From Rathayibacter agropyri (GTDB lineage Bacteria; Actinomycetota; Actinomycetes; Actinomycetales; Microbacteriaceae): a stretch of 64,000 nt of DNA. This document shows positions 40,783 through 54,145 of the stretch, piece by piece. Each line of letters opens with the position of its first letter. Positions within the stretch are counted from its first letter, which is position 1. Below the pieces are notes generated by a model. That model saw only the letters and a program-made list of their open reading frames with translations, was not told the origin of the DNA and made no database searches. The stretch is from the NCBI RefSeq assembly GCF_013249015.1, contig NZ_JABRPL010000001.1, positions 124,001 to 188,000 of the forward strand, written 5' to 3'. Both the position numbers and the translations under genes were made by a program.

Positions 40783-40798
40783 GGCCTTGCGGACCGAA

Positions 40799-40828
40799 CG
40801 TCTCTCCGGCTCGCAATGAGCGGAGACG
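40799..40828 (+). terminator. Hairpin after the aro genes
   Basis: CGTCTC-TCCG-GCTC, loop GCAAT, GAGC-GGAGACG makes a long stem with a small bulge 17 bp after the aroB stop. No T-run follows on the plus strand (ATTCTGG). It would separate the aro operon from the convergent levansucrase gene. Confidence 0.45.
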
Positions 40829-40857
40829 ATTCTGGCCCCGTGCGCGCTCACCGCAGG

Positions 40858-42582
40858 CTAGCGGCCGCGCTCCGCGATAAAGCGCTCGATAGCCACTCTC
40901 ACCTGCGGTAGAATAGGCCTTCCTTGGAAGTAGTCCTCCACCCGCGAGCCTACGGAAGACCTCATCCGCTTCATGTCTTTCTCCGAAACAGTCCAGGACC
41001 GCCCTCTCCGGGTAAACAAATGCATATTGGCAGGAATATCTGCCCACCGTCCGAGGCCATCGTTTCCATAGGAGTAGTCAACCGTCGAATTCACTCCGGT
41101 GACTGTGATCTTTACCGTTGGGGCGAGAGTGCCACCGCGCGAGAAGTGACTGCTCGTTCCCACGGAGTCGATGAACGACTCCACGAGCCCTCCCGGCATG
41201 ACGTAATGTGAGTACGCCGCAAACTGGCCGGCGGGCTGATTGTTGCTGGGTGAGTACGGCCTACCACCCGGAAAATTCAAGTTCGTGGGGTTTCCAAGCG
41301 CAAGTCCGGAACCACTGTTCAATGGTTGGAAATCGCTCCGGATACCATTGCCGACGAAAGCATAAACACCCTCTGGGCCGTCCATCCCCGAGGCGAACGT
41401 CTGACGATGACTGATGGTGAAGAGATACGCTTTTCCGCCTGTGAAAACAAACTGGGGGCGCTCGGTCTGATCGGTGACGCAGTTCGCCGACAGGACGGGC
41501 GGCAGAAACTCCCACTCGGTCAACGCTTTATTCTTAGCCCTCGCTAATCCGACGTTACCGATATAGTGTGCGGCACCAGACTCGTTCACCGCGTCAACGC
41601 TTTCGGCAAAAGGATCACCATCCCGGTAGCCAAGATCGCCCTTCGTGCATCGAGCTTCTTCTCGAGACAAAGCCGAGTTCCCCTCGAACACCATGTAGGT
41701 GTCGTCAGGGTGTGCTGGGTCCTTGAAAGTGAAGGGATCACGAAAGTTGAGATAGCGGTGTTGTTGCGCGTTTTGATAAAAAACACCGTCGGGAGTGAGT
41801 AGTTCATTCACATGATCGAATCCGTCGAATGAAACACCGTAAGCGTCCGCCTGGACGTGACCCACGCTCAGGACTAGACGGGGGTCGTAGGGTTTGATGT
41901 CCCGACCGGCGTCGTCCCAGTAAAAAGCGACATTGGTGAAAAATAGCTTGACTTCACCATTTTTGAATATGCGCGCGGAGCCTGACCACTGGGTTTGATG
42001 GCTGAAGGACCGATCGGCGAACATTTGATCTGTCACTCCCTCGTGGAAGACGAGACCACCGTAGGTCCAACCGCCGTTCTTTTGCCTTTTCGTCTCGGGA
42101 AGATTCGCTGGACGGTAGAAGTAGCCGATTTTGGCGGAAGTGTGGCGGTCATCGAAGCGGATGCTGCGATCAGCGACGAGCGAATAAATGATCTCCCACC
42201 CGTTCACCGAATACTGGTTCCCGTCTTCGTCCGTCACAGGCCAGGTATCCCACACCCAAACTTTTCCGTTCGACATGTCTGGGAAGGCCTGCGGAATAGT
42301 AGGCATCGTCAACGAGGTCGGCATGGAATTTTCCTGCGGCGGGGCAGACGAGTCTGACAGGCGCTTAAGTTGGCCGGCATCCGCACGAGTCCACTTCGAC
42401 GTGAAGTTGTCCTCTGGAGCAAAAGCCTGTTGTGAATGATCCGTCGGCTGCGGCCCCTTTTGAAGTGATTCCGCAGCTGCCGCCGGCCCGCCCCCGACGA
42501 ACATCGAAGCACACAGCGCACTACAAGCACAGATAATTAGAAGGGAACGACGTCGCCGACGTGCCCTCATTTCCTTAGTCAT
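40858..42582 (-). CDS. Secreted GH68 fructosyltransferase (levansucrase/inulosucrase type)
   Basis: 574 residues. A Sec-type signal peptide: RARRRRR, a hydrophobic core (SLLIICACSALCASMFVGG), and a likely cleavage after AAA near residue 37. GH68 residues are in place: nucleophile Asp112 in VWVWDTWPV, the RDP transition-state motif (281-283) in NFRDPFTF, and acid/base Glu374 in DQTERPQFVF. Expected to cleave sucrose and build levan or release fructose outside the cell; product type cannot be told. ATG 42582 is preceded by AAGGGG; a second ATG five codons upstream lacks one. Codon and base use are visibly less GC-rich than the aro genes, suggesting transfer. It converges on aroB and is the left end of the accessory island. 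Confidence 0.9.
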   Translation of the reverse strand: MTKEMRARRRRRSLLIICACSALCASMFVGGGPAAAAESLQKGPQPTDHSQQAFAPEDNFTSKWTRADAGQLKRLSDSSAPPQENSMPTSLTMPTIPQAFPDMSNGKVWVWDTWPVTDEDGNQYSVNGWEIIYSLVADRSIRFDDRHTSAKIGYFYRPANLPETKRQKNGGWTYGGLVFHEGVTDQMFADRSFSHQTQWSGSARIFKNGEVKLFFTNVAFYWDDAGRDIKPYDPRLVLSVGHVQADAYGVSFDGFDHVNELLTPDGVFYQNAQQHRYLNFRDPFTFKDPAHPDDTYMVFEGNSALSREEARCTKGDLGYRDGDPFAESVDAVNESGAAHYIGNVGLARAKNKALTEWEFLPPVLSANCVTDQTERPQFVFTGGKAYLFTISHRQTFASGMDGPEGVYAFVGNGIRSDFQPLNSGSGLALGNPTNLNFPGGRPYSPSNNQPAGQFAAYSHYVMPGGLVESFIDSVGTSSHFSRGGTLAPTVKITVTGVNSTVDYSYGNDGLGRWADIPANMHLFTRRGRSWTVSEKDMKRMRSSVGSRVEDYFQGRPILPQVRVAIERFIAERGR

Positions 42583-42813
42583 GACCGACCCCTTCATAGT
42601 GACCACCGCAATCTTAGGGGGCTGTGCCGGTCTGGGTAGGACGGCGGAGCCGTTAGACGCCACGAGGTGTCCCTCTGTGGTTTGTCAAGTGGTGGCGGCG
42701 GGTGGGTTGGAGTGTTTGTCCTTCAGGGACGGTCGCTCGTCGTGGCGCCCGCGTTACTCCTGAGCGTGGTCGTCGTCGCCCGAGAAGTTGTGCGCGCGAT
42801 AAGTCGCTCCGGC

Positions 42814-43461
42814 TCACGACGATCGGAGATCATTCTGACCTCGATCCGACATCTCCATGATGCGCGCGAGCTCATGGATCCGATCGAGAAGCAGAGCGGG
42901 GACTCTCGCGTCGGAGTCGTAGAGGGCATCAACGACCGTCTCCAGGCAGAGCACGAACTCCGTGTGCTCGTTGTACTCTCGGCACGAGGAGAACCATTCG
43001 GGATCGAAACGCTCCTCCAGTCGATCGAGCAACTGACCGAGGGCGAGTTCCATTCGGGTGGAGTAGAGAATGCCGAGGCTCTTGCGCAGGATGCGCACCG
43101 TTTCCGGACGAATCGGCCCGCGGTACTTTCGGCGCCAGAGGCCCCTCGCACGGATGGGATCAGGCGGCCCGGCTCCCTCCTCCCATGTCCCGGACGAGGC
43201 ATGGGCACCGGCACACCGCGGGACTCGATCCATGACTGTGCCGAGGTTCACGATGTACGCGACAGGGTAGTTTCGGGTTAGCACGTCCGGCCAGTTCTCG
43301 CTGTCCAGCCCGTGGAGGAGTTCATCCAGGCAGAGCGCGAAATCTTCGCGGCTCAGGGGATGCCGCAGGTACACCTCAGTCTGGGGATCGAGTCGCTGGC
43401 GCACCCGGTGGAGCACAGTGCGGAGTTCGGTGCGCACACGGCGGAGTCGCTGGTCGTAGAT
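42814..43461 (-). CDS. Tandem MafI-like immunity protein, apparent ATC start
   Basis: 215 residues made of two diverged copies of one helical domain. Copy 1 (residues 1-80) has the box FALCLDELLHGL; copy 2 (about 138-210) has EYNEHTEFVLCLETVVDAL. The same (F/Y)xxCL(E/D)xxxxxL box occurs in the single-domain gene at 44603-44854 and in the fusion at 44992-45849. This fits MafI-type immunity proteins of polymorphic toxins. The frame is closed by TGA just upstream. The only canonical start is GTG 43437, which has no SD and would cut off the first helix, whereas ATC at 43461 lies 5 nt after AGGAG. A direct AUC start is therefore proposed. The toxin neutralised is unknown. Confidence 0.62.
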   Translation of the reverse strand: MYDQRLRRVRTELRTVLHRVRQRLDPQTEVYLRHPLSREDFALCLDELLHGLDSENWPDVLTRNYPVAYIVNLGTVMDRVPRCAGAHASSGTWEEGAGPPDPIRARGLWRRKYRGPIRPETVRILRKSLGILYSTRMELALGQLLDRLEERFDPEWFSSCREYNEHTEFVLCLETVVDALYDSDARVPALLLDRIHELARIMEMSDRGQNDLRSS

Positions 43462-43625
43462 GGGTTCTCCTGTTCATGATGATGTGTGAGGTGACCGGAA
43501 CTGCTGCGCCACCGGTCCGCGACGGTACAACCCTGGTGGTGAAGTGTACAGACCATTCACGACGCAGAGGCCGGATAAGCCCAGTTCTGCTTGAGCTTCA
43601 TCATTGGCTATTGCGCTTGTTGCGC

Positions 43626-44126
43626 TCAATGGTACTCACCAAAGTCCACATGTGGATCAATAATCCAAAGATCCACTATCTTATTCCCACGGAGTCCCAA
43701 GGCACCGCCTTGACAAAATCGGTACGCAGTCCTGCTTTCCTCAACATCCACTTGTGCAACTCTAACAAGGTTTTTTGCGGAATCGTATTCTATGCGAAAA
43801 TCGCCGAACCCGACTGATACGGACTCCGCGTGATAGGCCATCCCTCCGGGGGGAATATCGTCCGTGTACAGGCTTCGATCGACAAATTTTGGCGGAGTGA
43901 GAACTCGTGGTTTCCAACTCACGGCAGGCGCAAATCCGTCTATGTACTGCAAGCGGCCGTCGGAGACATCAATCTCGATAGAAAGTGTATCAAAAGCTAG
44001 CATTCCCCCGCCGAAGACATCTGGAGCACGATCGAGGAAAATAAAAGAATGCTCTGTTGTTCGGTAGACAAGCCGTCCTCTCGTTGGCTCTACGTCGTCG
44101 CCAGGTCTTATCACGATAGCCTTCAC
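43626..44126 (-). CDS. Immunity-family paralogue of the protein at 48008-48490
   Basis: About 162-166 residues. Aligns along its whole length with the protein encoded right after the Rhs toxin: (R/S)xVY...xHSF, a central IEID...DGRLQY, W(K/R)PR, DRSLY(T/S)DxIP, and near the end TA(Y/V)RFC(Q/D)GxALGxxG....DLWIIDP. An orphan immunity gene, with no toxin gene next to it. GTG at 44126 has GAGGAG abutting it; the alignment with its paralogue favours GTG 44114, which has GGAGG 11 nt (or AAGG 5 nt) upstream. Role inferred from synteny: protection against related toxin tips of competitors. Confidence 0.68.
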   Translation of the reverse strand: MKAIVIRPGDDVEPTRGRLVYRTTEHSFIFLDRAPDVFGGGMLAFDTLSIEIDVSDGRLQYIDGFAPAVSWKPRVLTPPKFVDRSLYTDDIPPGGMAYHAESVSVGFGDFRIEYDSAKNLVRVAQVDVEESRTAYRFCQGGALGLRGNKIVDLWIIDPHVDFGEYH

Positions 44127-44167
44127 CTCCTCAACCAGTAGTGGTCAATTAGTTCTGCGTTTTGTTT

Positions 44168-44560
44168 CTAGGCAAGGTAAAGGGCAATCTCGTAGAGCCG
44201 ATTCCGCAGCAAGTCGAGTTCCTCATTAGGGCCGCGCGGGTAAGTGCCGTTGGTGTAGATGAGGACGTCGTTGAAACTTCCCATCCCTCTATACATGTGA
44301 AGAATCTTCCTTGATGCTTCACTGACGTCTGCGGAACTGTTTGAGGCCTTGACTTCCTCGAGTAGGGCTTGAAACGCTTTGGCCCAGGATGCGTCTCTTG
44401 CGTCGACAAAAAGCTTCTCCAGCGCCGAAAGCGTTTCGAGCATCGCTTCAACACTCATGTGAGTGACGAAGCGCCGAGAACTTCCACGCCATCGGAAAGC
44501 GACGGCTTGCCAATTGGGGTGGAGCTTCCGCCAAAAACTGCTCAAATGATCCCGTTTCAT
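44168..44560 (-). CDS. DUF6966-like immunity-type protein
   Basis: 130 residues from ATG 44560, or 96 from ATG 44458 (MSVEAMLETL), where the recognisable domain begins. The domain is helical with a conserved-looking GMGSFNDVLIY motif and NEELDLLRNRLYEIA near the end, a pattern I associate with DUF6966 proteins found in toxin-immunity arrays. That family name is from memory and needs a search. The 34-residue N-terminal extension has a close AGGAA SD but no family support. Lies between two immunity-like genes on the same strand. Confidence 0.55.
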   Translation of the reverse strand: MKRDHLSSFWRKLHPNWQAVAFRWRGSSRRFVTHMSVEAMLETLSALEKLFVDARDASWAKAFQALLEEVKASNSSADVSEASRKILHMYRGMGSFNDVLIYTNGTYPRGPNEELDLLRNRLYEIALYLA

Positions 44561-44602
44561 TTCCTGTCCCGCAACTGCCTGCTTTTGATACTTTATGCAA
44601 AG

Positions 44603-44854
44603 TCACTCGCGAACTAGGTCTTGCCATTCGCTGGGGTCGACTTTCAAGGCTACTCCAAGCTGCTCTACCTTATCTACTACGCGTCTCGGCAATGGTATCT
44701 CTAATTCATCCAGCTCGTAGGCTATCTGCTCGAGGCACACTTTGAACTCTTCGTGCTCCACATACTCACGGATATATTTCTCCTGCTGTGGCTTCACATA
44801 GTCCTTGATTTCGTCGATTAACCACAGGAGTTCACGCGTGTAGAATCTGTAGAT
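44603..44854 (-). CDS. Single-domain MafI-like immunity protein, apparent ATC start
   Basis: 83 residues, all helical, with the EYVEHEEFKVCLEQIAYEL box shared by the other MafI-like proteins of this array. In-frame TAA lies about 30 bp upstream. The only ATG/GTG/TTG in the domain is GTG at 44797, which would delete the first 19 residues, including the helix TRELLWLIDEI. ATC at 44854 is preceded by GGGAG with 8 nt spacing (or AGGA with 3 nt) and followed by TAC, exactly as in the gene at 42814-43461. Partner toxin unknown. The stop codon lies in a TTATGCAAA motif that recurs at 46016 and 46087. Confidence 0.6.
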   Translation of the reverse strand: MYRFYTRELLWLIDEIKDYVKPQQEKYIREYVEHEEFKVCLEQIAYELDELEIPLPRRVVDKVEQLGVALKVDPSEWQDLVRE

Positions 44855-44950
44855 TGTTCCTTCTCCCTTCCTGTCAACTTATCAGAAATTTAGTAATTGT
44901 ACCTCACGCGGTGAGGCTCATCCAGAACGTTTTAAATGGTCGGTGAGAAT

Positions 44951-44980
44951 GCTTGTCACCAGGGAGCTTGTCACCAGGGA
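44951..44980 (+). repeat. Perfect 15-bp tandem duplication
   Basis: GCTTGTCACCAGGGA occurs twice in immediate succession, just downstream of the stop of the MafI-barstar fusion. A hairpin CCTCAC-GCG-GTGAGG lies at 44902-44916. No coding function seen. Confidence 0.9.
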
Positions 44981-44991
44981 TTTTGCTGCGC

Positions 44992-45849
44992 TTAGCTGGG
45001 TTGTGAAGAGGCCTCTGTGTCTCCTTCTGGCGAGGCATAGAGGACCGGTTCGAGGCCGTGTCGACCCCATCTTTCCTGGACGCTCGCGAGGGCCTCGAAC
45101 TCGGAGAAGAGCGTGACGATCAAGGGGAGAGCTGGGCGGTCCGAGGAGTGGCCTTCCGCAATCGGCTCGCTCCAGATCTTTCCGGTGCGCTGGAGGGAGC
45201 CGGCGAAAAGCTCCGTCTCCGCCTCGGGTCGGTCGCGCAGGAGATGTTCTGACTCCATTACCGCGAGGAAGATGCCTGAGCCGACGTCTTGTTTTCCGAG
45301 GTCGCTCAGGCATGCATCGAAAGCGTTCGCGTCGCCGTCGCCGTCGTACGGCAGCTGCAAGGCGGCGGAGATCTGATCGAAGACACGTGCGATGTCCGGC
45401 ATCGCTCGGCCGCGCAGGAGTCGACTGGTGAAGCCGCGGCGCTCGTATTCGGCGACGAGACTTCCGGCCGCACCAGGTGTGTCATGGACAAAGCGGAAGG
45501 AAAAGCCAGGCTTATCAAGGGTGTCCCATGACAGGGCGCGAGGTGCTTGAATTGTTCCGAAAGGGTTGAACGGAGTCGCCGGGTCCGCGATCAGATTGCT
45601 CCAGATCGTCGCAGGGAGTTCTAGCTTCTGGGTCGTATCGACGATGACGTCTAACACCCAAGCGTCAACGGTTCGGTAAAGGTCGTTCAGCCCGAGAGCG
45701 ATCTGCTCGAGGCAGAGTCTGTACTGATCGTTGTCGAGAGAGACCCGGGCGGATCGAGCGCGCGGTCCGGGGATTACGTGCTGTGTGGCGGCGAGGACGA
45801 GCTCAAGGTCCCGGGCGATCTGTTGCTGTTGTTCTGCATTCAGGCGCAT
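44992..45849 (-). CDS. MafI-like plus barstar-like fusion immunity protein
   Basis: 285 residues. Residues 1-90 form a helical MafI-like domain with the box YRLCLEQIALGL. Residues about 115-270 are barstar-like: RLLRGRAM, a helix ending in ALQLPYDGDGDANAFDACLSDLG, TGKIWSEPI and LPLIVTLFS. The barstar part aligns with the stand-alone barstar protein at 46405-46938 (LRGxxM, NAFDxC(L/I)SDLG, GxIWSxPI, IVTLFS). ATG 45849 with SD AGAGAG; a longer in-frame reading to 46023 is not supported. One polypeptide thus combines two immunity folds, and so might neutralise two kinds of toxin tip. No toxin gene is adjacent. Confidence 0.72.
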   Translation of the reverse strand: MRLNAEQQQQIARDLELVLAATQHVIPGPRARSARVSLDNDQYRLCLEQIALGLNDLYRTVDAWVLDVIVDTTQKLELPATIWSNLIADPATPFNPFGTIQAPRALSWDTLDKPGFSFRFVHDTPGAAGSLVAEYERRGFTSRLLRGRAMPDIARVFDQISAALQLPYDGDGDANAFDACLSDLGKQDVGSGIFLAVMESEHLLRDRPEAETELFAGSLQRTGKIWSEPIAEGHSSDRPALPLIVTLFSEFEALASVQERWGRHGLEPVLYASPEGDTEASSQPS

Positions 45850-45984
45850 AATTTCTCTCTGGTGAGTTGACGGGTTTGCGTGGTGGCTAGCTACTGTCGC
45901 ATCGACGTCGCGCTTTTGATCGGCGGTCGTGTCGTAGTGAGTGCCGGTCCTTATTGGGGTAGATAAGCCGGAGGTCGACGATCC

Positions 45985-46125
45985 TTCTCGCTGTTGGTGC
46001 CCATTGCATTGAGGCTTATGCAAAATCCCCTCGCACGCCCAGCGAACAAGCCTCTGACCAGGGCTTTTGTGAAGCCCTACCCGGATTTTGCATAAACCTC
46101 ATTCTCGCTGTTGGTGCCCATTGCA
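45985..46125. repeat. 90-bp inverted-repeat element flanked by 24-bp direct repeats
   Basis: Identical 24-bp direct repeats lie at 45985-46008 and 46102-46125 (beginning TTCTCGCTGTTGG). Between them an 18-bp inverted repeat, GAGGCTTATGCAAAATCC at 46011-46028 and its complement at 46083-46100, pairs at 17 of 18 positions. It encloses a smaller perfect hairpin (GGGCTT/AAGCCC at 46061-46077). The right arm overlaps the 3' end of the immunity remnant. It resembles a small non-autonomous element (MITE-like) or a folded recombination site; no transposase is nearby. Confidence 0.72.
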
Positions 46126-46404
46126 CCGTTTTCGGAGAACCGATACGCCGTCGTAATCTGGGGTAGCCCTTTCCGCGCGATTCTCAGACGAATTCTAGAC
46201 GGGTCCAACTCGACGACGAGTATCACTTCGGAAGGATCGGTCCGAGATCGTTCGCAAATACTCCTATGGGCTGCCCGGCGCGGGACGGTTCGCGTCCACC
46301 CATTCACAGCAAACGAGTATTCGAGTCGGTTGACGTCGATGGCGATCTTGCCTTGACGGTCATATACATTCGCATGCGCGGACTGGTCTCCTTTGACAAG
46401 GCGC
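46077..46404 (-). pseudogene. 5'-truncated remnant of the Rhs immunity family
   Basis: Directly after the barstar stop, the minus strand reads without a stop through about 108 residues that match the middle and end of the immunity family at 48008-48490 and 43626-44126: KIAIDVNRLEYSF (compare IEIDVSDGRLQY), NGWTRT (compare SWKPR), RIRLRIARKGLPQITTAYRFSENGAMG (compare the TAYRFCQGGALG segment). The first 45 or so residues and any ATG with an SD are missing; GTG 46307 is the only in-frame candidate. The C-terminus is cut within the inverted-repeat element. Interpreted as a decaying immunity gene. Confidence 0.62.
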
Positions 46405-46938
46405 TTACACCTCGTGGTCCGGAATCGGTAACTGAATGAGGTCTATTTGCTGCTCTGCCCATTGACGTATTACCTCGCCATACTGTTCGACGGGAGAGAA
46501 AAGGGTAACGATGAACGGTTTGGCGTCTCTGTCCCATTCTTGTGCTTCATTTATCGGAGTTGACCATATCCGGCCCGCGCGGCGTAAGCTGTCGGCCAAG
46601 AATTCGAAGACGTCGGGTGGCGATTCGCTGAGTAGCAGGTGCGCGTCCGTGAGCGTCATGCAGACTCCTTTTCCGACTTCCTGATCGCCGAGATCACTGA
46701 TGCACTCGTCAAAGGCATTTCGATTGTACCCAAAGTAGTACGGAAACTGCATTCCAGCGGCGAATTCATCGTAAAGGGCGTTTTCGGACAGCATCTTATT
46801 TCCTCGAAGTCTTTTTGAAAAGTAGCCTTCTTTCTTATGGTGGTCGGTCAACTTTTGACCGAAGTCTGCGCCGGCGTTGATGAAATAGGTCTGGAACTGG
46901 GGGTCAGGTCCTAAAGACCATGGTGTTGGACAATTCAT
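46405..46938 (-). CDS. Barstar-family immunity protein
   Basis: 177 residues. Barstar fold signatures: KRLRGNKM, a helix-loop FPYYFGYNRNAFDECISDLG (the region that plugs ribonuclease active sites in barstar), AGRIWSTPI, and PFIVTLFSP strand. ATG overlaps the stop of the upstream ribonuclease-toxin cassette by 4 bp (ATGA), the usual toxin-immunity arrangement. Expected to bind and inhibit the barnase/RNase Sa-type domain coded just before it. Much lower GC than the Rhs core. Confidence 0.85.
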   Translation of the reverse strand: MNCPTPWSLGPDPQFQTYFINAGADFGQKLTDHHKKEGYFSKRLRGNKMLSENALYDEFAAGMQFPYYFGYNRNAFDECISDLGDQEVGKGVCMTLTDAHLLLSESPPDVFEFLADSLRRAGRIWSTPINEAQEWDRDAKPFIVTLFSPVEQYGEVIRQWAEQQIDLIQLPIPDHEV

Positions 46939-47915
46939 TGGGGCCCTCTCATGATGAAGAATTTATGGTAATGATCTCTGGTGTAGTAAGCGCTGCCGTC
47001 ATCACCCGTTACTAAGCGGGGACTTGGTCGTTTTTGTCCTGGTATCTTTGGCTCTAATTCATATTCCTTATATGCTATTGGTCTGCCGTCGGCTGTCGAT
47101 GTTGGAAGACGCTCGCGCCCTGGTTCCGGACGGTTGTGCCACGGTTGACCACCCTTAATGTTAGGGAATTTCTCACCAGTTGTGTCGAGCCGCTCCAAGA
47201 GTTGCACTGGTTTCTCGGGTATCGGACCCTGGAGAAATTCAGACCGAGCGGGCGCAGGGCGCGGATCGAGTTCGCCGAGTGCCTCTCGGGCGTGTGACAC
47301 ATCTGACTCAAGGGCTCCTGCGGCGCGAGCTCCGGCTCCGGCGAGGCCGTGTCCGAGGAGTGGTCCGCCGGCTCCCATGGCGGCGCCGGAGAGTGCGCCG
47401 CCGCCGGTGGCTTGGAGGAAGCCGTCGAGGGTGTGGGGTCCGGGTCCGGTGGCGTAGGCGTACGCGTCGCCGGAAGCGCCGGACGCGGCGCCGGAGGCGG
47501 CTTCGGTGGCGACTGCGGCTTTGAGGCCGTTGATCCCGGCGGCGCCGAGGCGGGCTGCCATGAGGCCGCTGCCGAGGCCGCCGGTGACCGCCATGAGCGC
47601 GGTTTGTCCCCAGTTGACGGAGCCTGTGGTGGCTTTTTGGACGATGACGTCGATTCCGGCGCCGACGAGGGCGGCACCGAGGGGGCCGCCGACTCCGGTG
47701 AACATCAGGGCGCCGCCGGCGAGAGCCATGGCGCCGCCGGCGATGTACTCCCAGTTGTCCGCCAGGAAGTCCCCGGCGGCGGCGAAGGCCCCGTTGTGGC
47801 CGTCGCGGTAGGCCTGGAGTTGCGCGTCGCTGACGGGGCTGAGACCTGCGGGGTCGAGCGCGTGTACCGGATCGTTGCCCGCGAAGGAGTAGGGGTTCCC
47901 GGACCAGGCCGCATC
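46935..47915 (-). pseudogene. Silent orphan Rhs C-terminal cassette with a barnase/RNase Sa-type toxin tip
   Basis: 326 codons open from an in-frame TAA at 47918-47916, beginning DAAWSGNPYSFAGNDP and DPAGLSPVSD like the end of the Rhs core of the full toxin. Then follow the same Gly-rich hydrophobic region and a different end: FPNIKGGQPWHNRP, AYKEYELEPKIPGQ, SPRLVTGDDGSAYYTRDHYHKFF. This is a guanyl-specific ribonuclease domain; Glu (YKEYELE), Arg (SPRLVTG) and His (DHYHKFF) match the catalytic triad positions of barnase and RNase Sa. No start codon with SD exists at its 5' end (ATG 47729 is internal and lacks one), so it is probably not expressed until recombined onto the Rhs gene. Confidence 0.82.
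47770..47912. repeat. 143-bp near-identical repeat (second copy at 49220-49362)
   Basis: The two copies differ at 9 of 143 positions by my count and have no gaps. They encode the Rhs core end (SGNPYSFAGNDP ... DPAGLSPVSD ... GHNGAFAAAGD) in the orphan cassette and in the full toxin. Weaker similarity continues for about 370 bp to the left of each copy. A recombination event here would replace the toxin tip and its immunity gene. Confidence 0.92.
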
Positions 47916-48007
47916 TTAGGTTTGCGGAGGGGAGCGGCCGAGGGGAAGCCGTGGGGAGCGGCGTCCTGGGCTTGGTGGTTCGGCAATTCCAGGCCGGCGG
48001 GCGGTGG

Positions 48008-48490
48008 TCACAAGCTGTCTCTGAAGAGCGGATCAATGATCCACAGGTCTGCAACGACATCGCCTTGGAATCCAAGTGCAGCGCCGTCGCAGAATCGAAC
48101 AGCGGTTTTTGATGGTTTGACTCCCTTGCGCGCTAAACGAAGCAGATTCTTATTTGCATCGTATTCGGGAAAAAATTTCCCGGCTCCTGCCGCGAATTCT
48201 TCCATTGGGTATGCAGCACCGGTCATGGGTATAATGTCCGAGTATAAACTCCGATCGAGTAGATCCGGCATCAAAAGAGATCGTGGTCGCCAACCCCCCA
48301 TTGATAGGTATCCCTCCGGGTATTGCAGCCTCCCGTCTTCACTGTCTATTTCTATCACAAGAGTGGAAAGCACCAGCATCGATCCGGAATCGAGATCGGT
48401 CTGTCGATTCTCAAAAGCGAATGAATGATCCTCCCCGATGTAGACGATCGAGCCACTTATTGGCTTGCTCTCTGGTCCAATGGCGATCAT
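48008..48490 (-). CDS. Cognate immunity protein of the Rhs toxin
   Basis: 160 residues. ATG overlaps the toxin stop by 4 bp, the standard position for an immunity gene. No database family is recognised by me. Visible features: mixed beta-strand pattern (GSIVYIGEDHSFAF, LVIEIDSEDGRLQYPEG), WRPRSL, DRSLYSDIIP, TAVRFCDGAALGFQGDVVADLWIIDP at the end. Two relatives lie in the same array (43626-44126 complete; 46077-46404 remnant). It probably binds the C-terminal toxin domain at 48487-48780. A 92-bp spacer with no recognisable content separates it from the orphan cassette. Confidence 0.72.
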   Translation of the reverse strand: MIAIGPESKPISGSIVYIGEDHSFAFENRQTDLDSGSMLVLSTLVIEIDSEDGRLQYPEGYLSMGGWRPRSLLMPDLLDRSLYSDIIPMTGAAYPMEEFAAGAGKFFPEYDANKNLLRLARKGVKPSKTAVRFCDGAALGFQGDVVADLWIIDPLFRDSL

Positions 48491-51400
48491 TTTTTTGACC
48501 CGCTTGTGTATAGGTAGTGGACGATTAACTTGTTCTTCTTGTCTACTACCAATTCCCAGTTGCCCGAGCTTCCATTGAAGCCCCCGGGTGCAACAAATTT
48601 GGTCATCCTAGGGTTTATGTCCGGCACTTTAGTACCGCCTTCCACAATTTGTTGCATTACGAGGCGTTGTTCATTGTATGGCCGATCAAAGTCGCCGTTG
48701 TTTTTCAACTTTGTTGAATATTTGAGTATGGATTTGCTCAGCGTGTATTCGAAGAGATCGGGCTTGGGAGTAAGGCGGGATATTGCGCGGGAGAGTCCCC
48801 CACCGAGTGCTCCGCCTGCGGCGCCGAGTGCTCCGCCGGCGAAGGCTCCGTCGGCGGTGGCTGCGACGAATTCGCCTGCGGTGTGGGGTCCTGGGCTGGT
48901 GGCGTAGGCGTAGGCGCTTCCGGCCCCGCCGCCGGAGGCGCCTGCTGCCGCGTTGACGGCGAGGGTTGCTTGTGCTCCCTTGATGCCGAGGGCGCCGAGG
49001 CGTGCGGCTGCGAGTCCGCCGCCGACTCCGCCTGCTACGGCGGTGAGGGCGGTTTGTGTCCAGTCGACGGAGCCTGTGGTGGCTTTTTGGATGATGGCGT
49101 CGGCTCCGGCGCCGATGAGGCCGAGGCCGATGGGTCCGCCGATTCCGGTGTACATCAGGAAGCCGCCGGCGATGATCAGCCCGGCGCCAGCAAAGTACTC
49201 CGCGTTTTGTGCGAACCAGTCCCCGGCGGCGGCGAAGGCTCCGTTGTGGCCGTCGCGGTAGGCCTGGAGTTGCGCGTCGCTGACCGGGCTCAAACCCGCA
49301 GGGTCGAGCGCGTGCACGGGGTCGTTGCCCGCGAAGGAGTAGGGGTTCCCGGACCAGGCCGCGCCCCACACGGGCGCCACAGGGTCGGTGGAGAGGAACC
49401 CCCGCGTCGAGGGGTCGTAGGCGCGTCGCCCCATCCATTCCAGTCCGGCGAAGGTGAGGGCGCCGCCGGGGGTGAGTCCGACGCCGTCCGCGACGGTGGT
49501 CGCGGCCGACGGGTTCCACGGGTCTCGTGTGCTGGTCGAGCGTTCGCTGCGCCAGCCCGGGTCGGTCCACTGGTCGCCGATGCCGGTGACTCCACCGGGC
49601 GTGCGCAGGACGGGGGAGTCGCCAATAGCGAGGAGGTCGGGGGCTCCGCTCGCGTCGTCCCACCACACGTCGGCGCCCTGCACGGAGGCAAGTTCGCCGA
49701 GCACGTCCACCCATAGCGACGTCGTGCTCGGCGCGGAACCCGGGTGCGACTGAGAGACCGACGCCAGGTTGCCAGTCGCAGACCAGGCGTACGTCCGCTC
49801 CGAACCATCGGAGGACACTTCGCGGATGCGGCGACCGAGCCCGTCGTGCACATACTCGACCCGCGAGCCGTCGCTGGATGCCGTCGCGACCAGTTGACCG
49901 CCAGCGTCGTAGTGCCTCGTGCGGGTGATCCCGCCTTCGCGCTCGTGCACGAGTCGTCCGGCCGCGTCGAAGGTCCACTCGATGGGGTCGCCGGAGTCCG
50001 GGATCGCGGCCACGAGTTGGTGCGCTTCGTCGTAGCGGTAGGCGACGGACCCGTCCGGACCGCTCACCCCCACGAGACGTCCCTCCGTGTCGCGCTGGAG
50101 TCTGGTGGCGGTGGTGCGCCCGCCGCCGCTTCGCCGGTGCTCGACGAGTGCGCCGTCGCGGAAGAGCCACTCCTGGGCCTGCCCGCCCGCGGAGGACCGG
50201 ACGAGGCGGCCCGAGCTGTCGTGGGTGAACGTGGCGCGACCGAGGCGCGGATGCGTGATGGCGGTGACGAGTCCGCGGACGTCACGCTCGTACTCGGTGC
50301 GCTGTCCGTTGGGGTGGACGACGGCGGTACGGGAACCGTCGGCGTCGTACTCCCACGAGACGCCGCTGCCGCCGCGGCGACGCTCAATGAGCTGACCGCG
50401 GCGATTCCAGCGCAGCTCGTGCTCGACCGGTCCGCCCGGCGCGGTGTGGTCGGTGACGCGGAGAGCACGGCCGCGAATATCGCGGTCGGTCTCGGAGACG
50501 ACGCGACCGTCGATCAGGAAGCTCTTCTCGCGGCCGTCGGAGTCGTACTGCCGTTCCCAGCGTGATCCGTCCCGATCCCGCTGCCAGATTTGGCGGCCTG
50601 CGGCGTCGTAGCCGCCGGTCGTTGTGCGCCCGAGCGGATCGGTGGTCTCGACGGCACGGTCGGAGGCGTCGAAGCGCCGGCGGGTGACGCCTCCCATCGG
50701 GTCGATGATGACCGTATTGCGACCGCGCTCGTCGTACTCGAAGCGGGTGACGCCTCCGACCCCGTCGACGGCCTCGACCAACTGGCCCGCGGCGTCGTAG
50801 CGGAACCGGCGCCGGCCTGTCCACGGGTCGCTCGAACGGACGACCCGCCCGAGAGCGTCGTAGGCGAATCGGGCTGTGCCCAGGCCGGGGATCGAGCGCA
50901 CCAGCACGCGGCCGACGGCGTCGTACTCGATGCGCTCGACCTCGCCGGTGGGGAGGATGGTCCGCACGCGGCGCGAGTCGCGGTCGTACTCGATCGCGGT
51001 CCGTGCACCGAGTGGATCGATGACGGCGGCCGGTCGACCGCAGCGGTCGTACTCGAAGGTGGTCACGGCTCCGGTGGGGGCGACGCGCTCGATGATCCGT
51101 CCGGCAGCGTCGCGGCGCAGGACCGTGACCGAACCCTCGCCATCGACCAGCTCGACGGGTCGACCGCAGAGGTCGTAGGAGGCGAGAGCCACGGTCTCGC
51201 CCTGCTCCTCGACGCGGATCAGGCGGCCCAGGGAATCGAAGCGGGTCAACTCCTGCGCGCCGCCATCGTCGATCCGGAGGGACTGCGGTTCGTGGTGGAG
51301 GCCGCGTCGGACGCCGGTGGGATCGATGGTGGCCGTGAGGGCGCCCGTCGCGCTGTGCTCGCGGCGCCACACGCCTCCGCTGGGGTCGACCGTCTCGGTC

Positions 51401-53799
51401 AGCCGGGAGAGTGCGTCGTGACCGAACCGCCAGGACGAACCGTCCGGCAGGATCGTCTCGCTGACGAGGCCGACGTCGTCGAGGACGCGGGTCACGGCAC
51501 GGCCGAGTGGGTCGACTGTTCGGACCGGGGCACCGTGCTCGCCGTGTTCGATGGTGGTGCGCCCGCCGAGCGGATCGACGACGGCGACCCTGCGCCCGAC
51601 GGCGTCGTACTCGTAGCGCCAGGTCGCCCCAAGGGCATCGCGCGTCGAGACGAGTCGCCCGGCCGCGTCGTAGCGGAACTGGGAGACCGCTCCCGACGGG
51701 GTGATCGCGGCGATGACCCGGCCTGCCTCGTCGCGCTCCAGCCGGGCGCTGGCTCCGTCGGCGTCGGTCGTGGCGATGAGGTCGCCGTACTGGTCGTAGG
51801 AGAAGCGCAGGCGGACGCCGACCGGATCGACGATCTCGGTGAGCAGGCCGTCGAACCAGGTGAGGATCGTGTGCCCGCCCTCGGGGTCGACGACGAGGCT
51901 CGGGTTCCGGTCGGACTCTCGTGCGTACTCGTAGGTGGTCACCGCGCCGGACTCGGCGACCACTGCGGTGACGCGGTCGTGCTGGTCCCAGCCCACGGTC
52001 ACGTCGGCGCGGGAGGGGGTGACCGTGCGGATGCGGCGCCCGCGGTCGTCATACGCGTGCGCTGTCGTCGCTCCGTCGCGCTCGATGGCGGAGAGGATGT
52101 TGCCGTGCCTGTCGAGGGTCATCGACTGGCGGCGGCCCGTGGGGTCGAGCACCCCGACCAGCCGGCCGCGGGTGTCCGAGATCCAGCTGTTGCTGCGGGA
52201 GCCGTCCTCGTCGGAGGCGACGGTGATCCGGCCGGGGAGATACGCGAAGCGGGTTGTGCGACCGAAGTGAGAGGTCTGCGCGATGACGCGGCGCCGCGAG
52301 TCGTAGCGGTTCTGAACCTCGGCGACGCCCGCCACATCGCTGACGGTCGTGAGGAGCCCCGCATCGCTCCAGCCGTAGCGGCGGGTTCCCGCGAGGCCGG
52401 TCGCCGCGATCAGGGCATCGCCCTCGTACTCGAAGACGACGCGCCGTCCGTCCGAGGCTTCCAGGGCGATGATCCGCTCGCCCTCCCAGATCACGTCGAT
52501 ACGGCGGCCCCGCTCGTGCTGGAGGGCGCTGAGGCGGCCCTCGGCGTCGCGCTCCCCGCCCACCCGTGTGCCTGGGCCGTTACTCGACGCACGCCAGAGC
52601 CCGGTCGCCGAGAACTCCCAGCGGCCGCCGGCGTTGTCGGAGACGAGGAGGGCGTCGCTGATCCGCTCAAGCCAGAGGTTCTCGCCGTCGGCTCGGTCCC
52701 AGCCGTCCCCCAGCCGCGGGAACACGGTCTCGCGACCATCGGCGAGCACCAGCGTCGCGCCGTCGTCCTCCAGGCGAAGACGCACCTCGGCGTCGGAGGA
52801 CCAGCCGCGCCCGAAGGCGCCGACCCGTTCATCCAGCGAGTTGTACGTGCGGGCGAAGCGCAGCGAAGCATTTCCGCCGCTGAAACCCAGGTCGACCTCG
52901 GTCTCGAGGAAGTTGCCGGTGGCGGTGTTGACGGGATCGTCGGCATAGCCGGTGGTCGGGGGAGCACCGAACGCCTGCGGAGGAGCGATGACGATGTCCT
53001 GGCGGACCAGGGAGACGCCGGCCGAGTTCAGGGCAGTGGCGAGCGCCGCGTCGGGGAGAGTCGTCACCGACCCCGCACCTCCGGCCGCAGCGAAGGCGTC
53101 GGCAATTGTGCCGGCCCAGGCAACGTCCTGGTCATTGGCGGACAACCACTGCTGGAAGCCAGCGACCACAGTGTCGGCCGAAAGTCCGCCCCACTGGCAG
53201 GACGCGGCGAACTCTTCCAGCCAACCCCGCACCGACGCGAGCTTCCCGCGCAACTCCTCGTTTGCCGTCCCCGACGACGCGGCGAAAGAGCGCAGGTCTT
53301 CCGGGCGGGCCGAAGTCGTACCACCGCCCGTGCCGCCGCTGCCGGGGAACGGATTCTGCCGAGCGCCACTCGTCGACGGCTCCACACTGAGAGACAACGG
53401 CGTGGCAGGCGGACCCACGGGCGGCTCCTCCTCGCCGAAGAGGCCATCGTGCATCTGCTCGAGGACGTTGCGCGCATCCTGCTTGCGCTTCCACTCCCGA
53501 GCGATCAAGCGCCGCTTCTGCTCGGCGAGCGCCTCGCGCGCCAACTGCTGCACGGCGTCCGCGACCTCGCGGAGGCGGACCACGAGCTCGTCCGAGTCGG
53601 ACTTCGCGACCCGTGCGTTCTCGGCGAACACCTGGGCGAACAGCCCGCGGAACTCGGCGCTTGCCGCCGAGACGAGGGCAGCGCGCGAGGCTGCCTGCGC
53701 CTCGATCGCGGCGGCGGCCGAGATGGCCGAGCCGGTCAGTTGCTCGGCGGTCGCATGACTGAAGCGGACGTTGTCCTCGATCGCACCCAGATCTGCCAC
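48487..53799 (-). CDS. Rhs/YD-repeat polymorphic toxin
   Basis: 1770 residues. (1) Residues 1-130: helical, Ala-rich, ESX/LXG-like, no signal peptide. (2) Gly/Ser linker, then a second helical segment (about 185-270). (3) DUF6531-type start of the shell: DPVNTATGNFLETEVDLGF near 285. (4) About 1150 residues of YD repeats (for example YDAVGRRVAVVDPLGGRT). (5) Core end RGFLSTDPVAPVWG ... NPYSFAGNDPVHALDPAGL near 1470-1500. (6) A Gly-rich hydrophobic region that could be a membrane-passage segment. (7) A tip of about 95 residues, with a basic start and PGGFNGSSGNWELVVDKK ... IVHYLY, which I cannot assign. GTG 53799 with SD GGAGGAG. A contact-dependent competition toxin is expected; the type VII export route is inferred from the N-terminus only. 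Confidence 0.9.
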   Translation of the reverse strand: MADLGAIEDNVRFSHATAEQLTGSAISAAAAIEAQAASRAALVSAASAEFRGLFAQVFAENARVAKSDSDELVVRLREVADAVQQLAREALAEQKRRLIAREWKRKQDARNVLEQMHDGLFGEEEPPVGPPATPLSLSVEPSTSGARQNPFPGSGGTGGGTTSARPEDLRSFAASSGTANEELRGKLASVRGWLEEFAASCQWGGLSADTVVAGFQQWLSANDQDVAWAGTIADAFAAAGGAGSVTTLPDAALATALNSAGVSLVRQDIVIAPPQAFGAPPTTGYADDPVNTATGNFLETEVDLGFSGGNASLRFARTYNSLDERVGAFGRGWSSDAEVRLRLEDDGATLVLADGRETVFPRLGDGWDRADGENLWLERISDALLVSDNAGGRWEFSATGLWRASSNGPGTRVGGERDAEGRLSALQHERGRRIDVIWEGERIIALEASDGRRVVFEYEGDALIAATGLAGTRRYGWSDAGLLTTVSDVAGVAEVQNRYDSRRRVIAQTSHFGRTTRFAYLPGRITVASDEDGSRSNSWISDTRGRLVGVLDPTGRRQSMTLDRHGNILSAIERDGATTAHAYDDRGRRIRTVTPSRADVTVGWDQHDRVTAVVAESGAVTTYEYARESDRNPSLVVDPEGGHTILTWFDGLLTEIVDPVGVRLRFSYDQYGDLIATTDADGASARLERDEAGRVIAAITPSGAVSQFRYDAAGRLVSTRDALGATWRYEYDAVGRRVAVVDPLGGRTTIEHGEHGAPVRTVDPLGRAVTRVLDDVGLVSETILPDGSSWRFGHDALSRLTETVDPSGGVWRREHSATGALTATIDPTGVRRGLHHEPQSLRIDDGGAQELTRFDSLGRLIRVEEQGETVALASYDLCGRPVELVDGEGSVTVLRRDAAGRIIERVAPTGAVTTFEYDRCGRPAAVIDPLGARTAIEYDRDSRRVRTILPTGEVERIEYDAVGRVLVRSIPGLGTARFAYDALGRVVRSSDPWTGRRRFRYDAAGQLVEAVDGVGGVTRFEYDERGRNTVIIDPMGGVTRRRFDASDRAVETTDPLGRTTTGGYDAAGRQIWQRDRDGSRWERQYDSDGREKSFLIDGRVVSETDRDIRGRALRVTDHTAPGGPVEHELRWNRRGQLIERRRGGSGVSWEYDADGSRTAVVHPNGQRTEYERDVRGLVTAITHPRLGRATFTHDSSGRLVRSSAGGQAQEWLFRDGALVEHRRSGGGRTTATRLQRDTEGRLVGVSGPDGSVAYRYDEAHQLVAAIPDSGDPIEWTFDAAGRLVHEREGGITRTRHYDAGGQLVATASSDGSRVEYVHDGLGRRIREVSSDGSERTYAWSATGNLASVSQSHPGSAPSTTSLWVDVLGELASVQGADVWWDDASGAPDLLAIGDSPVLRTPGGVTGIGDQWTDPGWRSERSTSTRDPWNPSAATTVADGVGLTPGGALTFAGLEWMGRRAYDPSTRGFLSTDPVAPVWGAAWSGNPYSFAGNDPVHALDPAGLSPVSDAQLQAYRDGHNGAFAAAGDWFAQNAEYFAGAGLIIAGGFLMYTGIGGPIGLGLIGAGADAIIQKATTGSVDWTQTALTAVAGGVGGGLAAARLGALGIKGAQATLAVNAAAGASGGGAGSAYAYATSPGPHTAGEFVAATADGAFAGGALGAAGGALGGGLSRAISRLTPKPDLFEYTLSKSILKYSTKLKNNGDFDRPYNEQRLVMQQIVEGGTKVPDINPRMTKFVAPGGFNGSSGNWELVVDKKNKLIVHYLYTSGSKK

Positions 53800-54145
53800 A
53801 GTGACTCCTCCTGCACCCGGCGCTGAGACCGGTGCTCGAAGCACGAGCGGGAGCCGGCGCCCTGCTCCCGCTGTGCCCAGGGGCAGAGGCGGGTCGGATC
53901 GGCCGAGGAGCGCACCGAGGAAGGCTCGCCAACGCTAACCAGGCGAGCGTGCAGGAGGCGGAGATTGGCGCTTCGCTGGCGCGGATCGTCGGGGGCCGCG
54001 TGGTCGGGGGAGGCAGCGGCCAGAACCCTCTGCCGCAGCGGGCTCTTCGACTACACTCGACGGGTCAGCCGGACCGGCCGATATCGCCGCGCCCGCGTAC
54101 CGGGCTGGCGGGCGCAGACTTCCACCGAAACGGATTTTCCTTCGC
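53800..54145. other. Intergenic region between the Rhs toxin and efp
   Basis: 346 bp without a supported gene. On the minus strand it contains the toxin SD and a small palindrome, GTGCT-CGA-AGCAC, at 53832-53844. On the plus strand TACACT at 54052-54057 is a possible efp -10 with a poor -35, leaving a leader of about 80 nt. Nothing else is seen. It is the right boundary of the accessory island. Confidence 0.5.

What the first reader, a model, noticed from the sequence alone, without database searches (positions are those of the whole stretch)
44852..44854. Second, independent ATC start in the neighbouring MafI-like gene
The single-domain paralogue shows the same design: GGGAG with 8 nt spacing, then ATC TAC, then the conserved helix. 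In-frame TAA lies upstream and no ATG, GTG or TTG occurs before GTG 44797, which would delete 19 residues. Two paralogues with the same non-canonical codon make random error less likely and suggest deliberate low-level or conditional initiation, for example one sensitive to IF3 or the start-context.
Basis: partly seen in the sequence, partly recalled or inferred. Interest (0 to 1): 0.75.

Follow-up and report, generated by a model that had tools for sequence, protein, structure and literature searches.

The report
Immunity gene that lost its start
A small spare antitoxin-type gene in a Rathayibacter-like bacterium has the weak codon ATC where its relatives have an ordinary start codon, most likely because the unused gene is being silenced rather than because ATC is a special switch.

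Summary
On the minus strand an 83-codon MafI-like frame opens after TAA 44881-44879. ATC 44854-44852 sits 8 nt behind GGGAG, and no ATG, GTG or TTG occurs before GTG 44797. The two-domain MafI-like gene 1.1 kb away also has ATC, at 43461-43459.

The suggested design is not supported. The closest homologue of the single-domain gene (Rathayibacter-group genome G005, 80% identical) has ATG at the aligned position. That of the two-domain gene (G004, 93%) has ATG, and the G015 copy GTG. Of 11 MafI-domain genes found outside the window, 0 need ATC. The island is full of decay: G004 lacks the single-domain gene; in G005 an IS-like element and an octamer array separate Shine-Dalgarno from ATG; the two-domain gene has an internal stop in G015 and is a 3' scrap in G005.

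Most likely the ATCs are derived start losses in orphan immunity genes, leaving little or no product. A selected low-output AUC start is not excluded; nothing here measured translation.

The parts
44852..44854 (-). ATC at the ancestral start position of the single-domain MafI-like gene
   Evidence: aligned with ATG of the G005 homologue and behind a leader homologous to G005's
44603..44854 (-). single-domain MafI-like frame, 83 codons plus TGA
   Evidence: NF033691 E 1.7e-5, 24.5 bits, below the cut-off of 31; 80% identical to G005
44863..44867 (-). GGGAG Shine-Dalgarno-like, 8 nt before ATC
   Evidence: homologous AAGGGA in G005
44879..44881 (-). in-frame TAA that closes the frame upstream
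44795..44797 (-). GTG, first standard start downstream (AAGGA 4 nt before it); CTA in G005
44592..44875 (-). segment holding the gene that is absent from G004, whose flanks match at 91% and 93%
43459..43461 (-). ATC at the start position of the two-domain MafI-like gene
   Evidence: ATG in G004, GTG in G015 at the aligned place
42814..43461 (-). two-domain MafI-like frame, 215 codons plus TGA
   Evidence: NF033691 E 3e-8, 33.4 bits for the 207 residues from GTG 43437; 93% identical to G004
43467..43471 (-). AGGAG Shine-Dalgarno-like of the two-domain gene, 5 nt before ATC
   Evidence: unchanged in G004
44992..45849 (-). MafI-barstar fusion gene just upstream, ATG start
   Evidence: Pfam Barstar E 2.1e-5; N-terminal MafI-like domain by alignment
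48487..53844 (-). Rhs protein at the head of the island
   Evidence: RHS_repeat E 1e-102, 24 stretches

Best explanation
The single-domain gene is an orphan MafI-like immunity gene in a Rhs-linked immunity island of a Rathayibacter-like chromosome. In the window's lineage ATC stands where homologues have an ordinary start codon; the two-domain gene in the same island changed in the same way independently. Shown: the aligned standard starts in homologues, the homologous leader with its Shine-Dalgarno, and loss or breakage of these genes in relatives. Inferred: with the immunity function no longer needed, loss of the start was tolerated, and AUC now gives only a trickle of product or none. The gene is in early silencing, its frame still open because the change is recent.
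For: Standard starts at the aligned position: G005 ATG; two-domain G004 ATG and G015 GTG; 0 of 11 outside genes need ATC. Decay in relatives: single-domain gene absent from G004; in G005 an element with a DDE transposase (Pfam DDE_Tnp_4 E 2.9e-21) and a 6.2-copy octamer array separate Shine-Dalgarno from the last ATG; the two-domain gene has an internal TAG in G015 and only a 28-residue 3' match in G005. The two-domain copy with ATC shows 4 synonymous and 8 nonsynonymous changes on its branch (start codon left out) against 12 and 2 on the G004 branch (Fisher p 0.014); a stricter codon-level count gives 4:7 against 11:2 (p 0.033). Nothing toxin-like was recognised directly upstream of the single-domain gene; its neighbour is another immunity-type gene.
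Against: The single-domain gene shows no relaxed selection: dN/dS 0.09 against G005 (31 synonymous, 19 nonsynonymous, dS 1.15), and it has no second lesion; if the start is dead, the loss must be recent. Its ancestral ATG rests on one close homologue. The branch test is small, its outgroup (G015) is itself broken, four more changed codons (1 synonymous, 3 nonsynonymous) could not be placed, and 4:8 does not differ from the pooled other island genes (53:50, p 0.36); the unusual branch is G004's (p 0.02). Start loss as the first lesion in both genes is unlikely under plain neutral decay (0.1-0.7%).
Confidence: 0.64

Rival explanations
1. ATC is a working, selected low-output start: AUC with a good Shine-Dalgarno gives a small, steady amount of immunity protein, in both genes.
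For: Both frames intact; Shine-Dalgarnos kept; leaders not more structured than shuffles (z 1.34 and 0.86). AUC can initiate: one ATC upstream site in an E. coli N-terminome (PMC13245402, passage); an AUC mutant lacZ fusion in B. subtilis still expressed at a much lower level (PMC10303841, passage); AUC in a Chlamydomonas chloroplast gene cited as lowering initiation by 10-20% (PMC9845219, passage). Small joint chance of two start losses as first lesions; dN/dS 0.09 for the single-domain gene.
Against: No homologue found needs ATC (0 of 11), so nothing shows conservation; the two-domain ATC branch lacks the purifying selection seen on G004's; in reconstituted translation IF3 disfavours weaker third-base pairs (PMC10158994, passages).
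Confidence: 0.2
2. Translation starts at GTG 44797, giving a shortened 64-residue protein.
For: AAGGA lies 4 nt before GTG; the shortened product still matches NF033691 weakly (E 9.3e-4, 19 bits).
Against: G005 has CTA there. Codons 2-19 show the same mix of changes as the rest (8 synonymous and 5 nonsynonymous against 21 and 11, p 1.0), so the N-terminus was protein-coding for most of the divergence. The start would remove predicted helix 1 (residues 2-16; single-sequence AlphaFold2 model, mean pLDDT 70.8).
Confidence: 0.08
3. One or both ATCs are sequencing or assembly errors.
For: Only one sequence of this strain is at hand; its genome is not held.
Against: Two separate sites. No sign of motif-specific miscalling: ATGTAC occurs 13 times in the window against 12.0 expected, and of 26 ATGTA[CT] sites in seven loci of relatives 19 align with ATGTAC and 1 with ATGTAT in the window; 1 is the two-domain start itself (overlapping alignments counted apart).
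Confidence: 0.08

Closest known systems
MafI family immunity proteins (NCBIfam NF033691; Neisseria MafB/MafI)
   Same: Residues 8-68 match model positions 4-64 of 67; immunity-type gene in a polymorphic-toxin island.
   Different: 24.5 bits, under the curated 31; no MafB recognised; beside an Rhs protein in an actinobacterium; ATC at the start position.
Orphan immunity genes in toxin immunity islands (e.g. esaG arrays, PMC9484751, passages)
   Same: Strings of immunity-like genes, some without a matching toxin, with members annotated as pseudogenes.
   Different: Here the lesion is at the start codon with the frame still open, in two genes of one island.
Near-cognate AUC starts in bacteria (passages in PMC13245402, PMC9094748, PMC10303841)
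   Same: ATC as the candidate start, here behind a Shine-Dalgarno.
   Different: No evidence of translation here; homologues have standard starts.
ATG-to-ATC start change in a CREE-disrupted PAAR gene of Neisseria mucosa (PMC10210955, passage)
   Same: Same codon change in an interbacterial-competition locus, function doubtful.
   Different: There ascribed to an inserted repeat; here a point difference with no insert seen at the site.

Membership tests
MafI family immunity protein (NF033691) | score over the curated cut-off of 31 bits | tested here: not met
   single-domain 24.5 bits; its G005 homologue 23.8. The two-domain gene scores 33.4 in the window; its G004 homologue 32.1 in the genome search and 29.9 as a protein. 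Hence the single-domain gene is MafI-like, not filed as a member.
MafI family immunity protein (NF033691) | lies directly behind its cognate toxin gene | tested here: not met
   the upstream gene is a MafI-barstar fusion
MafI family immunity protein (NF033691) | neutralises a toxin | not testable with these tools
   needs a bench test
Gene with a functional non-standard (AUC) start | no ATG, GTG or TTG in the frame before the conserved domain, ATC behind a Shine-Dalgarno | tested here: met
   GTG 44797 would cost predicted helix 1
Gene with a functional non-standard (AUC) start | non-standard start conserved among homologues | tested here: not met
   0 of 11 homologues outside the window
Gene with a functional non-standard (AUC) start | initiation at AUC measured | not testable with these tools
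   no Ribo-seq or N-terminal peptides at hand
Decaying orphan immunity gene (pseudogene) | loss of an expression signal that relatives have | tested here: met
   standard start at the aligned place in relatives
Decaying orphan immunity gene (pseudogene) | relaxed purifying selection | tested here: inconclusive
   two-domain 4S:8N against 12S:2N in G004, but single-domain dN/dS 0.09, and 4:8 is like other island genes (p 0.36)
Decaying orphan immunity gene (pseudogene) | further inactivating lesions in the frame | tested here: not met
   both window frames are open to their stops

The most novel reading that the evidence does not exclude
Two immunity genes of one Rhs island have been tuned down, in parallel and under selection, by exchanging their start for AUC behind a good Shine-Dalgarno: a low-output, IF3-sensitive memory of past toxins, kept at little cost.
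Probability: 0.15. Interest if true: 0.6.

Novelty: new member of a known kind. Interest (0 to 1): 0.22.

Why it matters
If AUC really drives these genes, annotation that allows only ATG/GTG/TTG would miss or shorten working immunity genes, and orphan immunity genes would be a natural test bed for near-cognate initiation outside model bacteria. If not, as is more likely, the island is a tidy view of how orphan immunity genes go silent: start loss, an IS-like element between Shine-Dalgarno and start, loss of the whole gene, and an internal stop, caught side by side in the window and three related genomes.

Tried and rejected
Systematic miscalling or avoidance of ATGTAC: not seen, 13 copies against 12.0 expected. 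Gene conversion between the two starts: not seen by eye, only ATCTAC and GGAGAA are shared. A standard start further upstream: excluded by TAA 44881. Promoter and terminator scan: 2 promoter-like sites against 1.2 in shuffles, 0 terminators against 3.1; uninformative. Plasmid search with the protein: no match. First genome-contig scan with the MafI-like protein: 92 stretches matched a pattern, none confirmed. Enrichment of ATC-TAC was therefore not tested.

Rows dropped before the start-codon count of 11: the G005 3' remnant of the two-domain gene (L094), a G005 match of 39 profile positions with 2 TAG (L110), a second G005 stretch like the N-terminus of the MafI-barstar gene (L096:12092-12232), and a weak G001 match (L081, E 0.51; not inspected). 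The 11 counted: G005 two, G004 three, G015 two, G495 one, G796 one, G901 two. For G796 and G901 more than one standard start is possible; I did not choose among them. The G015 two-domain GTG is counted although that gene has an internal TAG.

Names such as aroB and the pyrimidine genes are my reading of the translations, from no call. [quoted passage not shown] coli (Hecht 2017) is not held; that AUC initiates at a very low level there is recalled. A phrase search for ATC/AUC start codons listed 20 of 37 papers, mostly mitochondrial genomes; I looked at passages of two of them.

Full report
What is there. The window is a Rathayibacter-like chromosome: the protein that I read as AroB is 94% identical to that of Rathayibacter sp. 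Leaf185. Behind it lies an Rhs protein (48487-53844 minus) followed, in the direction of transcription, by a string of small immunity-type genes. In Leaf185 about 13 kb, window 40784-54037, is missing: the matches on both sides lie 418 nt apart.

The claimed start. The 83-codon frame 44854-44603 is closed upstream by TAA 44881-44879 and has no ATG, GTG or TTG before GTG 44797. ATC 44854 stands 8 nt behind GGGAG. The two-domain frame 43461-42814 has ATC TAC 5 nt behind AGGAG. NF033691 (MafI) matches the single-domain frame with 24.5 bits, under its cut-off of 31, and the two-domain frame with 33.4.

Homologues. In 15 genomes of the genus, the single-domain protein finds an 80% match in G005; its other matches, in G004, G005 and G015, are 20-36% identical. 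The two-domain protein finds 93% in G004 and 80% in G015. G005 has ATG TAT exactly at the ATC. Its leader is homologous too: ATTACTA..TTTC.GAT, TTGACA and AAGGGA precede the start in both, although in G005 an array and an element now separate this leader from the frame. G004 has ATG, and G015 GTG, where the two-domain gene has ATC. Including more distant genes, 11 MafI-domain genes outside the window all have a usable ATG or GTG; 0 of 11 need ATC. ATC is therefore derived, by parsimony, in the two-domain gene; for the single-domain gene one close homologue supports this.

The island decays. G004 lacks a stretch that corresponds to window 44592-44875, that is, the single-domain gene and most of its leader, while the flanks match at 91% and 93%. 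In G005 the start octamer ATGTATGA has grown to 6.2 tandem copies, and an element with a DDE transposase and inverted ends lies between this array, with its Shine-Dalgarno, and the last ATG, so that copy too is doubtful. The two-domain gene has an internal TAG in G015 and is a 28-residue scrap in G005. In the window a 92-nt palindromic insert with ends like those of the G005 element lies upstream, at 46010-46101.

Selection. Against G005 the single-domain gene has dN/dS 0.09: 31 synonymous and 19 nonsynonymous differences, dS 1.15. Codons 2-19 follow the same pattern as the rest, so the N-terminus was translated for most of the divergence, and GTG 44797, which is CTA in G005, was not the old start. 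If the start is now dead, that is recent. The two-domain gene, with G015 as outgroup, has 4 synonymous and 8 nonsynonymous changes on the window branch (start codon left out) and 12 and 2 on the G004 branch, with 1 and 3 not placed (p 0.014); a stricter codon-level count gives 4:7 and 11:2 (p 0.033). As a control, four other island genes (one of them only its first 62 codons; G005 as outgroup) pooled give 20:19 on the window branch and 33:31 on G004's, changes not placed left out (counts, test). So the window branch is not distinct from the island in general (p 0.36), and the conserved G004 branch is the exception (p 0.02). This hints at relaxed selection on the ATC copy but is weak.

Is the coincidence telling? 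Under a simple mutation model the chance that the first lesion of both genes is loss of the start is 0.0013-0.0072, depending on the indel share, and that both are ATC 0.00002-0.00009. That favours some tolerance of ATC over plain chance. Two things weaken it: the pair was chosen after reading many genes, and G-to-C or C-to-G exchanges are frequent in this group (13-48% of substitutions in seven locus alignments, 13% in the island alignment with G004), whereas the model gave them no extra weight. A miscalling bias was looked for and not seen.

Would AUC work? The leaders are open: fold energies are not lower than in shuffles (z 1.34 and 0.86). Published passages show that AUC can initiate, mostly weakly: one ATC upstream site in an E. 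coli N-terminome (PMC13245402), an AUC lacZ fusion in B. subtilis expressed at a much lower level (PMC10303841), AUC, AUU and AUA named as rare starts (PMC9094748), and a cited chloroplast case with only a 10-20% drop (PMC9845219). In a reconstituted system IF3 disfavours weaker third-base pairs (PMC10158994). So some protein is possible, but nothing here shows it. The single-sequence AlphaFold2 model (mean pLDDT 70.8, pTM 0.57) has five helices; starting at GTG 44797 would remove helix 1.

Verdict. A real observation; most likely an orphan immunity gene whose start was lost, with little or no product. A selected low-output AUC start remains open at about one in five. Interest is modest. The comparison of the window with three related genomes is the useful part, because it shows several ways in which such genes go silent, two of them at the initiation step.

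Noticed in passing
window 46010-46101: A 92-nt palindromic MITE-like insert (19-nt ends, 95% complementary) between 27-nt direct repeats (45982-46008 and 46099-46125); absent from G004; its ends resemble those of the transposase element in G005 (L096:10984-11894).
   Followed up: partly
L096:11896-11945: In G005 the start octamer of the single-domain gene is expanded to 6.2 tandem copies behind the Shine-Dalgarno, which puts ATGs in several frames; possibly phase-variable before the element arrived.
   Followed up: partly
window 44992-45849: Fusion of an N-terminal MafI-like domain (no NF033691 match; its G004 and G005 homologues match profile A3) with a barstar domain.
   Followed up: partly
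window 46405-47729: A gene with a weak ribonuclease match (PF00545, 22.3 bits, cut-off 24) directly followed by a barstar gene (E 9.2e-14): looks like a displaced Rhs tip with a barnase/barstar-like pair (the Rhs link is by eye).
   Followed up: no
window 40858-42663: Levansucrase (GH68, E 2e-127) of lower GC (56%) between aroB and the island; no match in the stretches of G004, G005 and G015 compared.
   Followed up: no
L097:13719-13801: In the 17.7 kb of G004 that were fetched, only about the last 84 bp of aroB (89%) lie beside the island, as if the aroB end had been copied or used as a junction.
   Followed up: no
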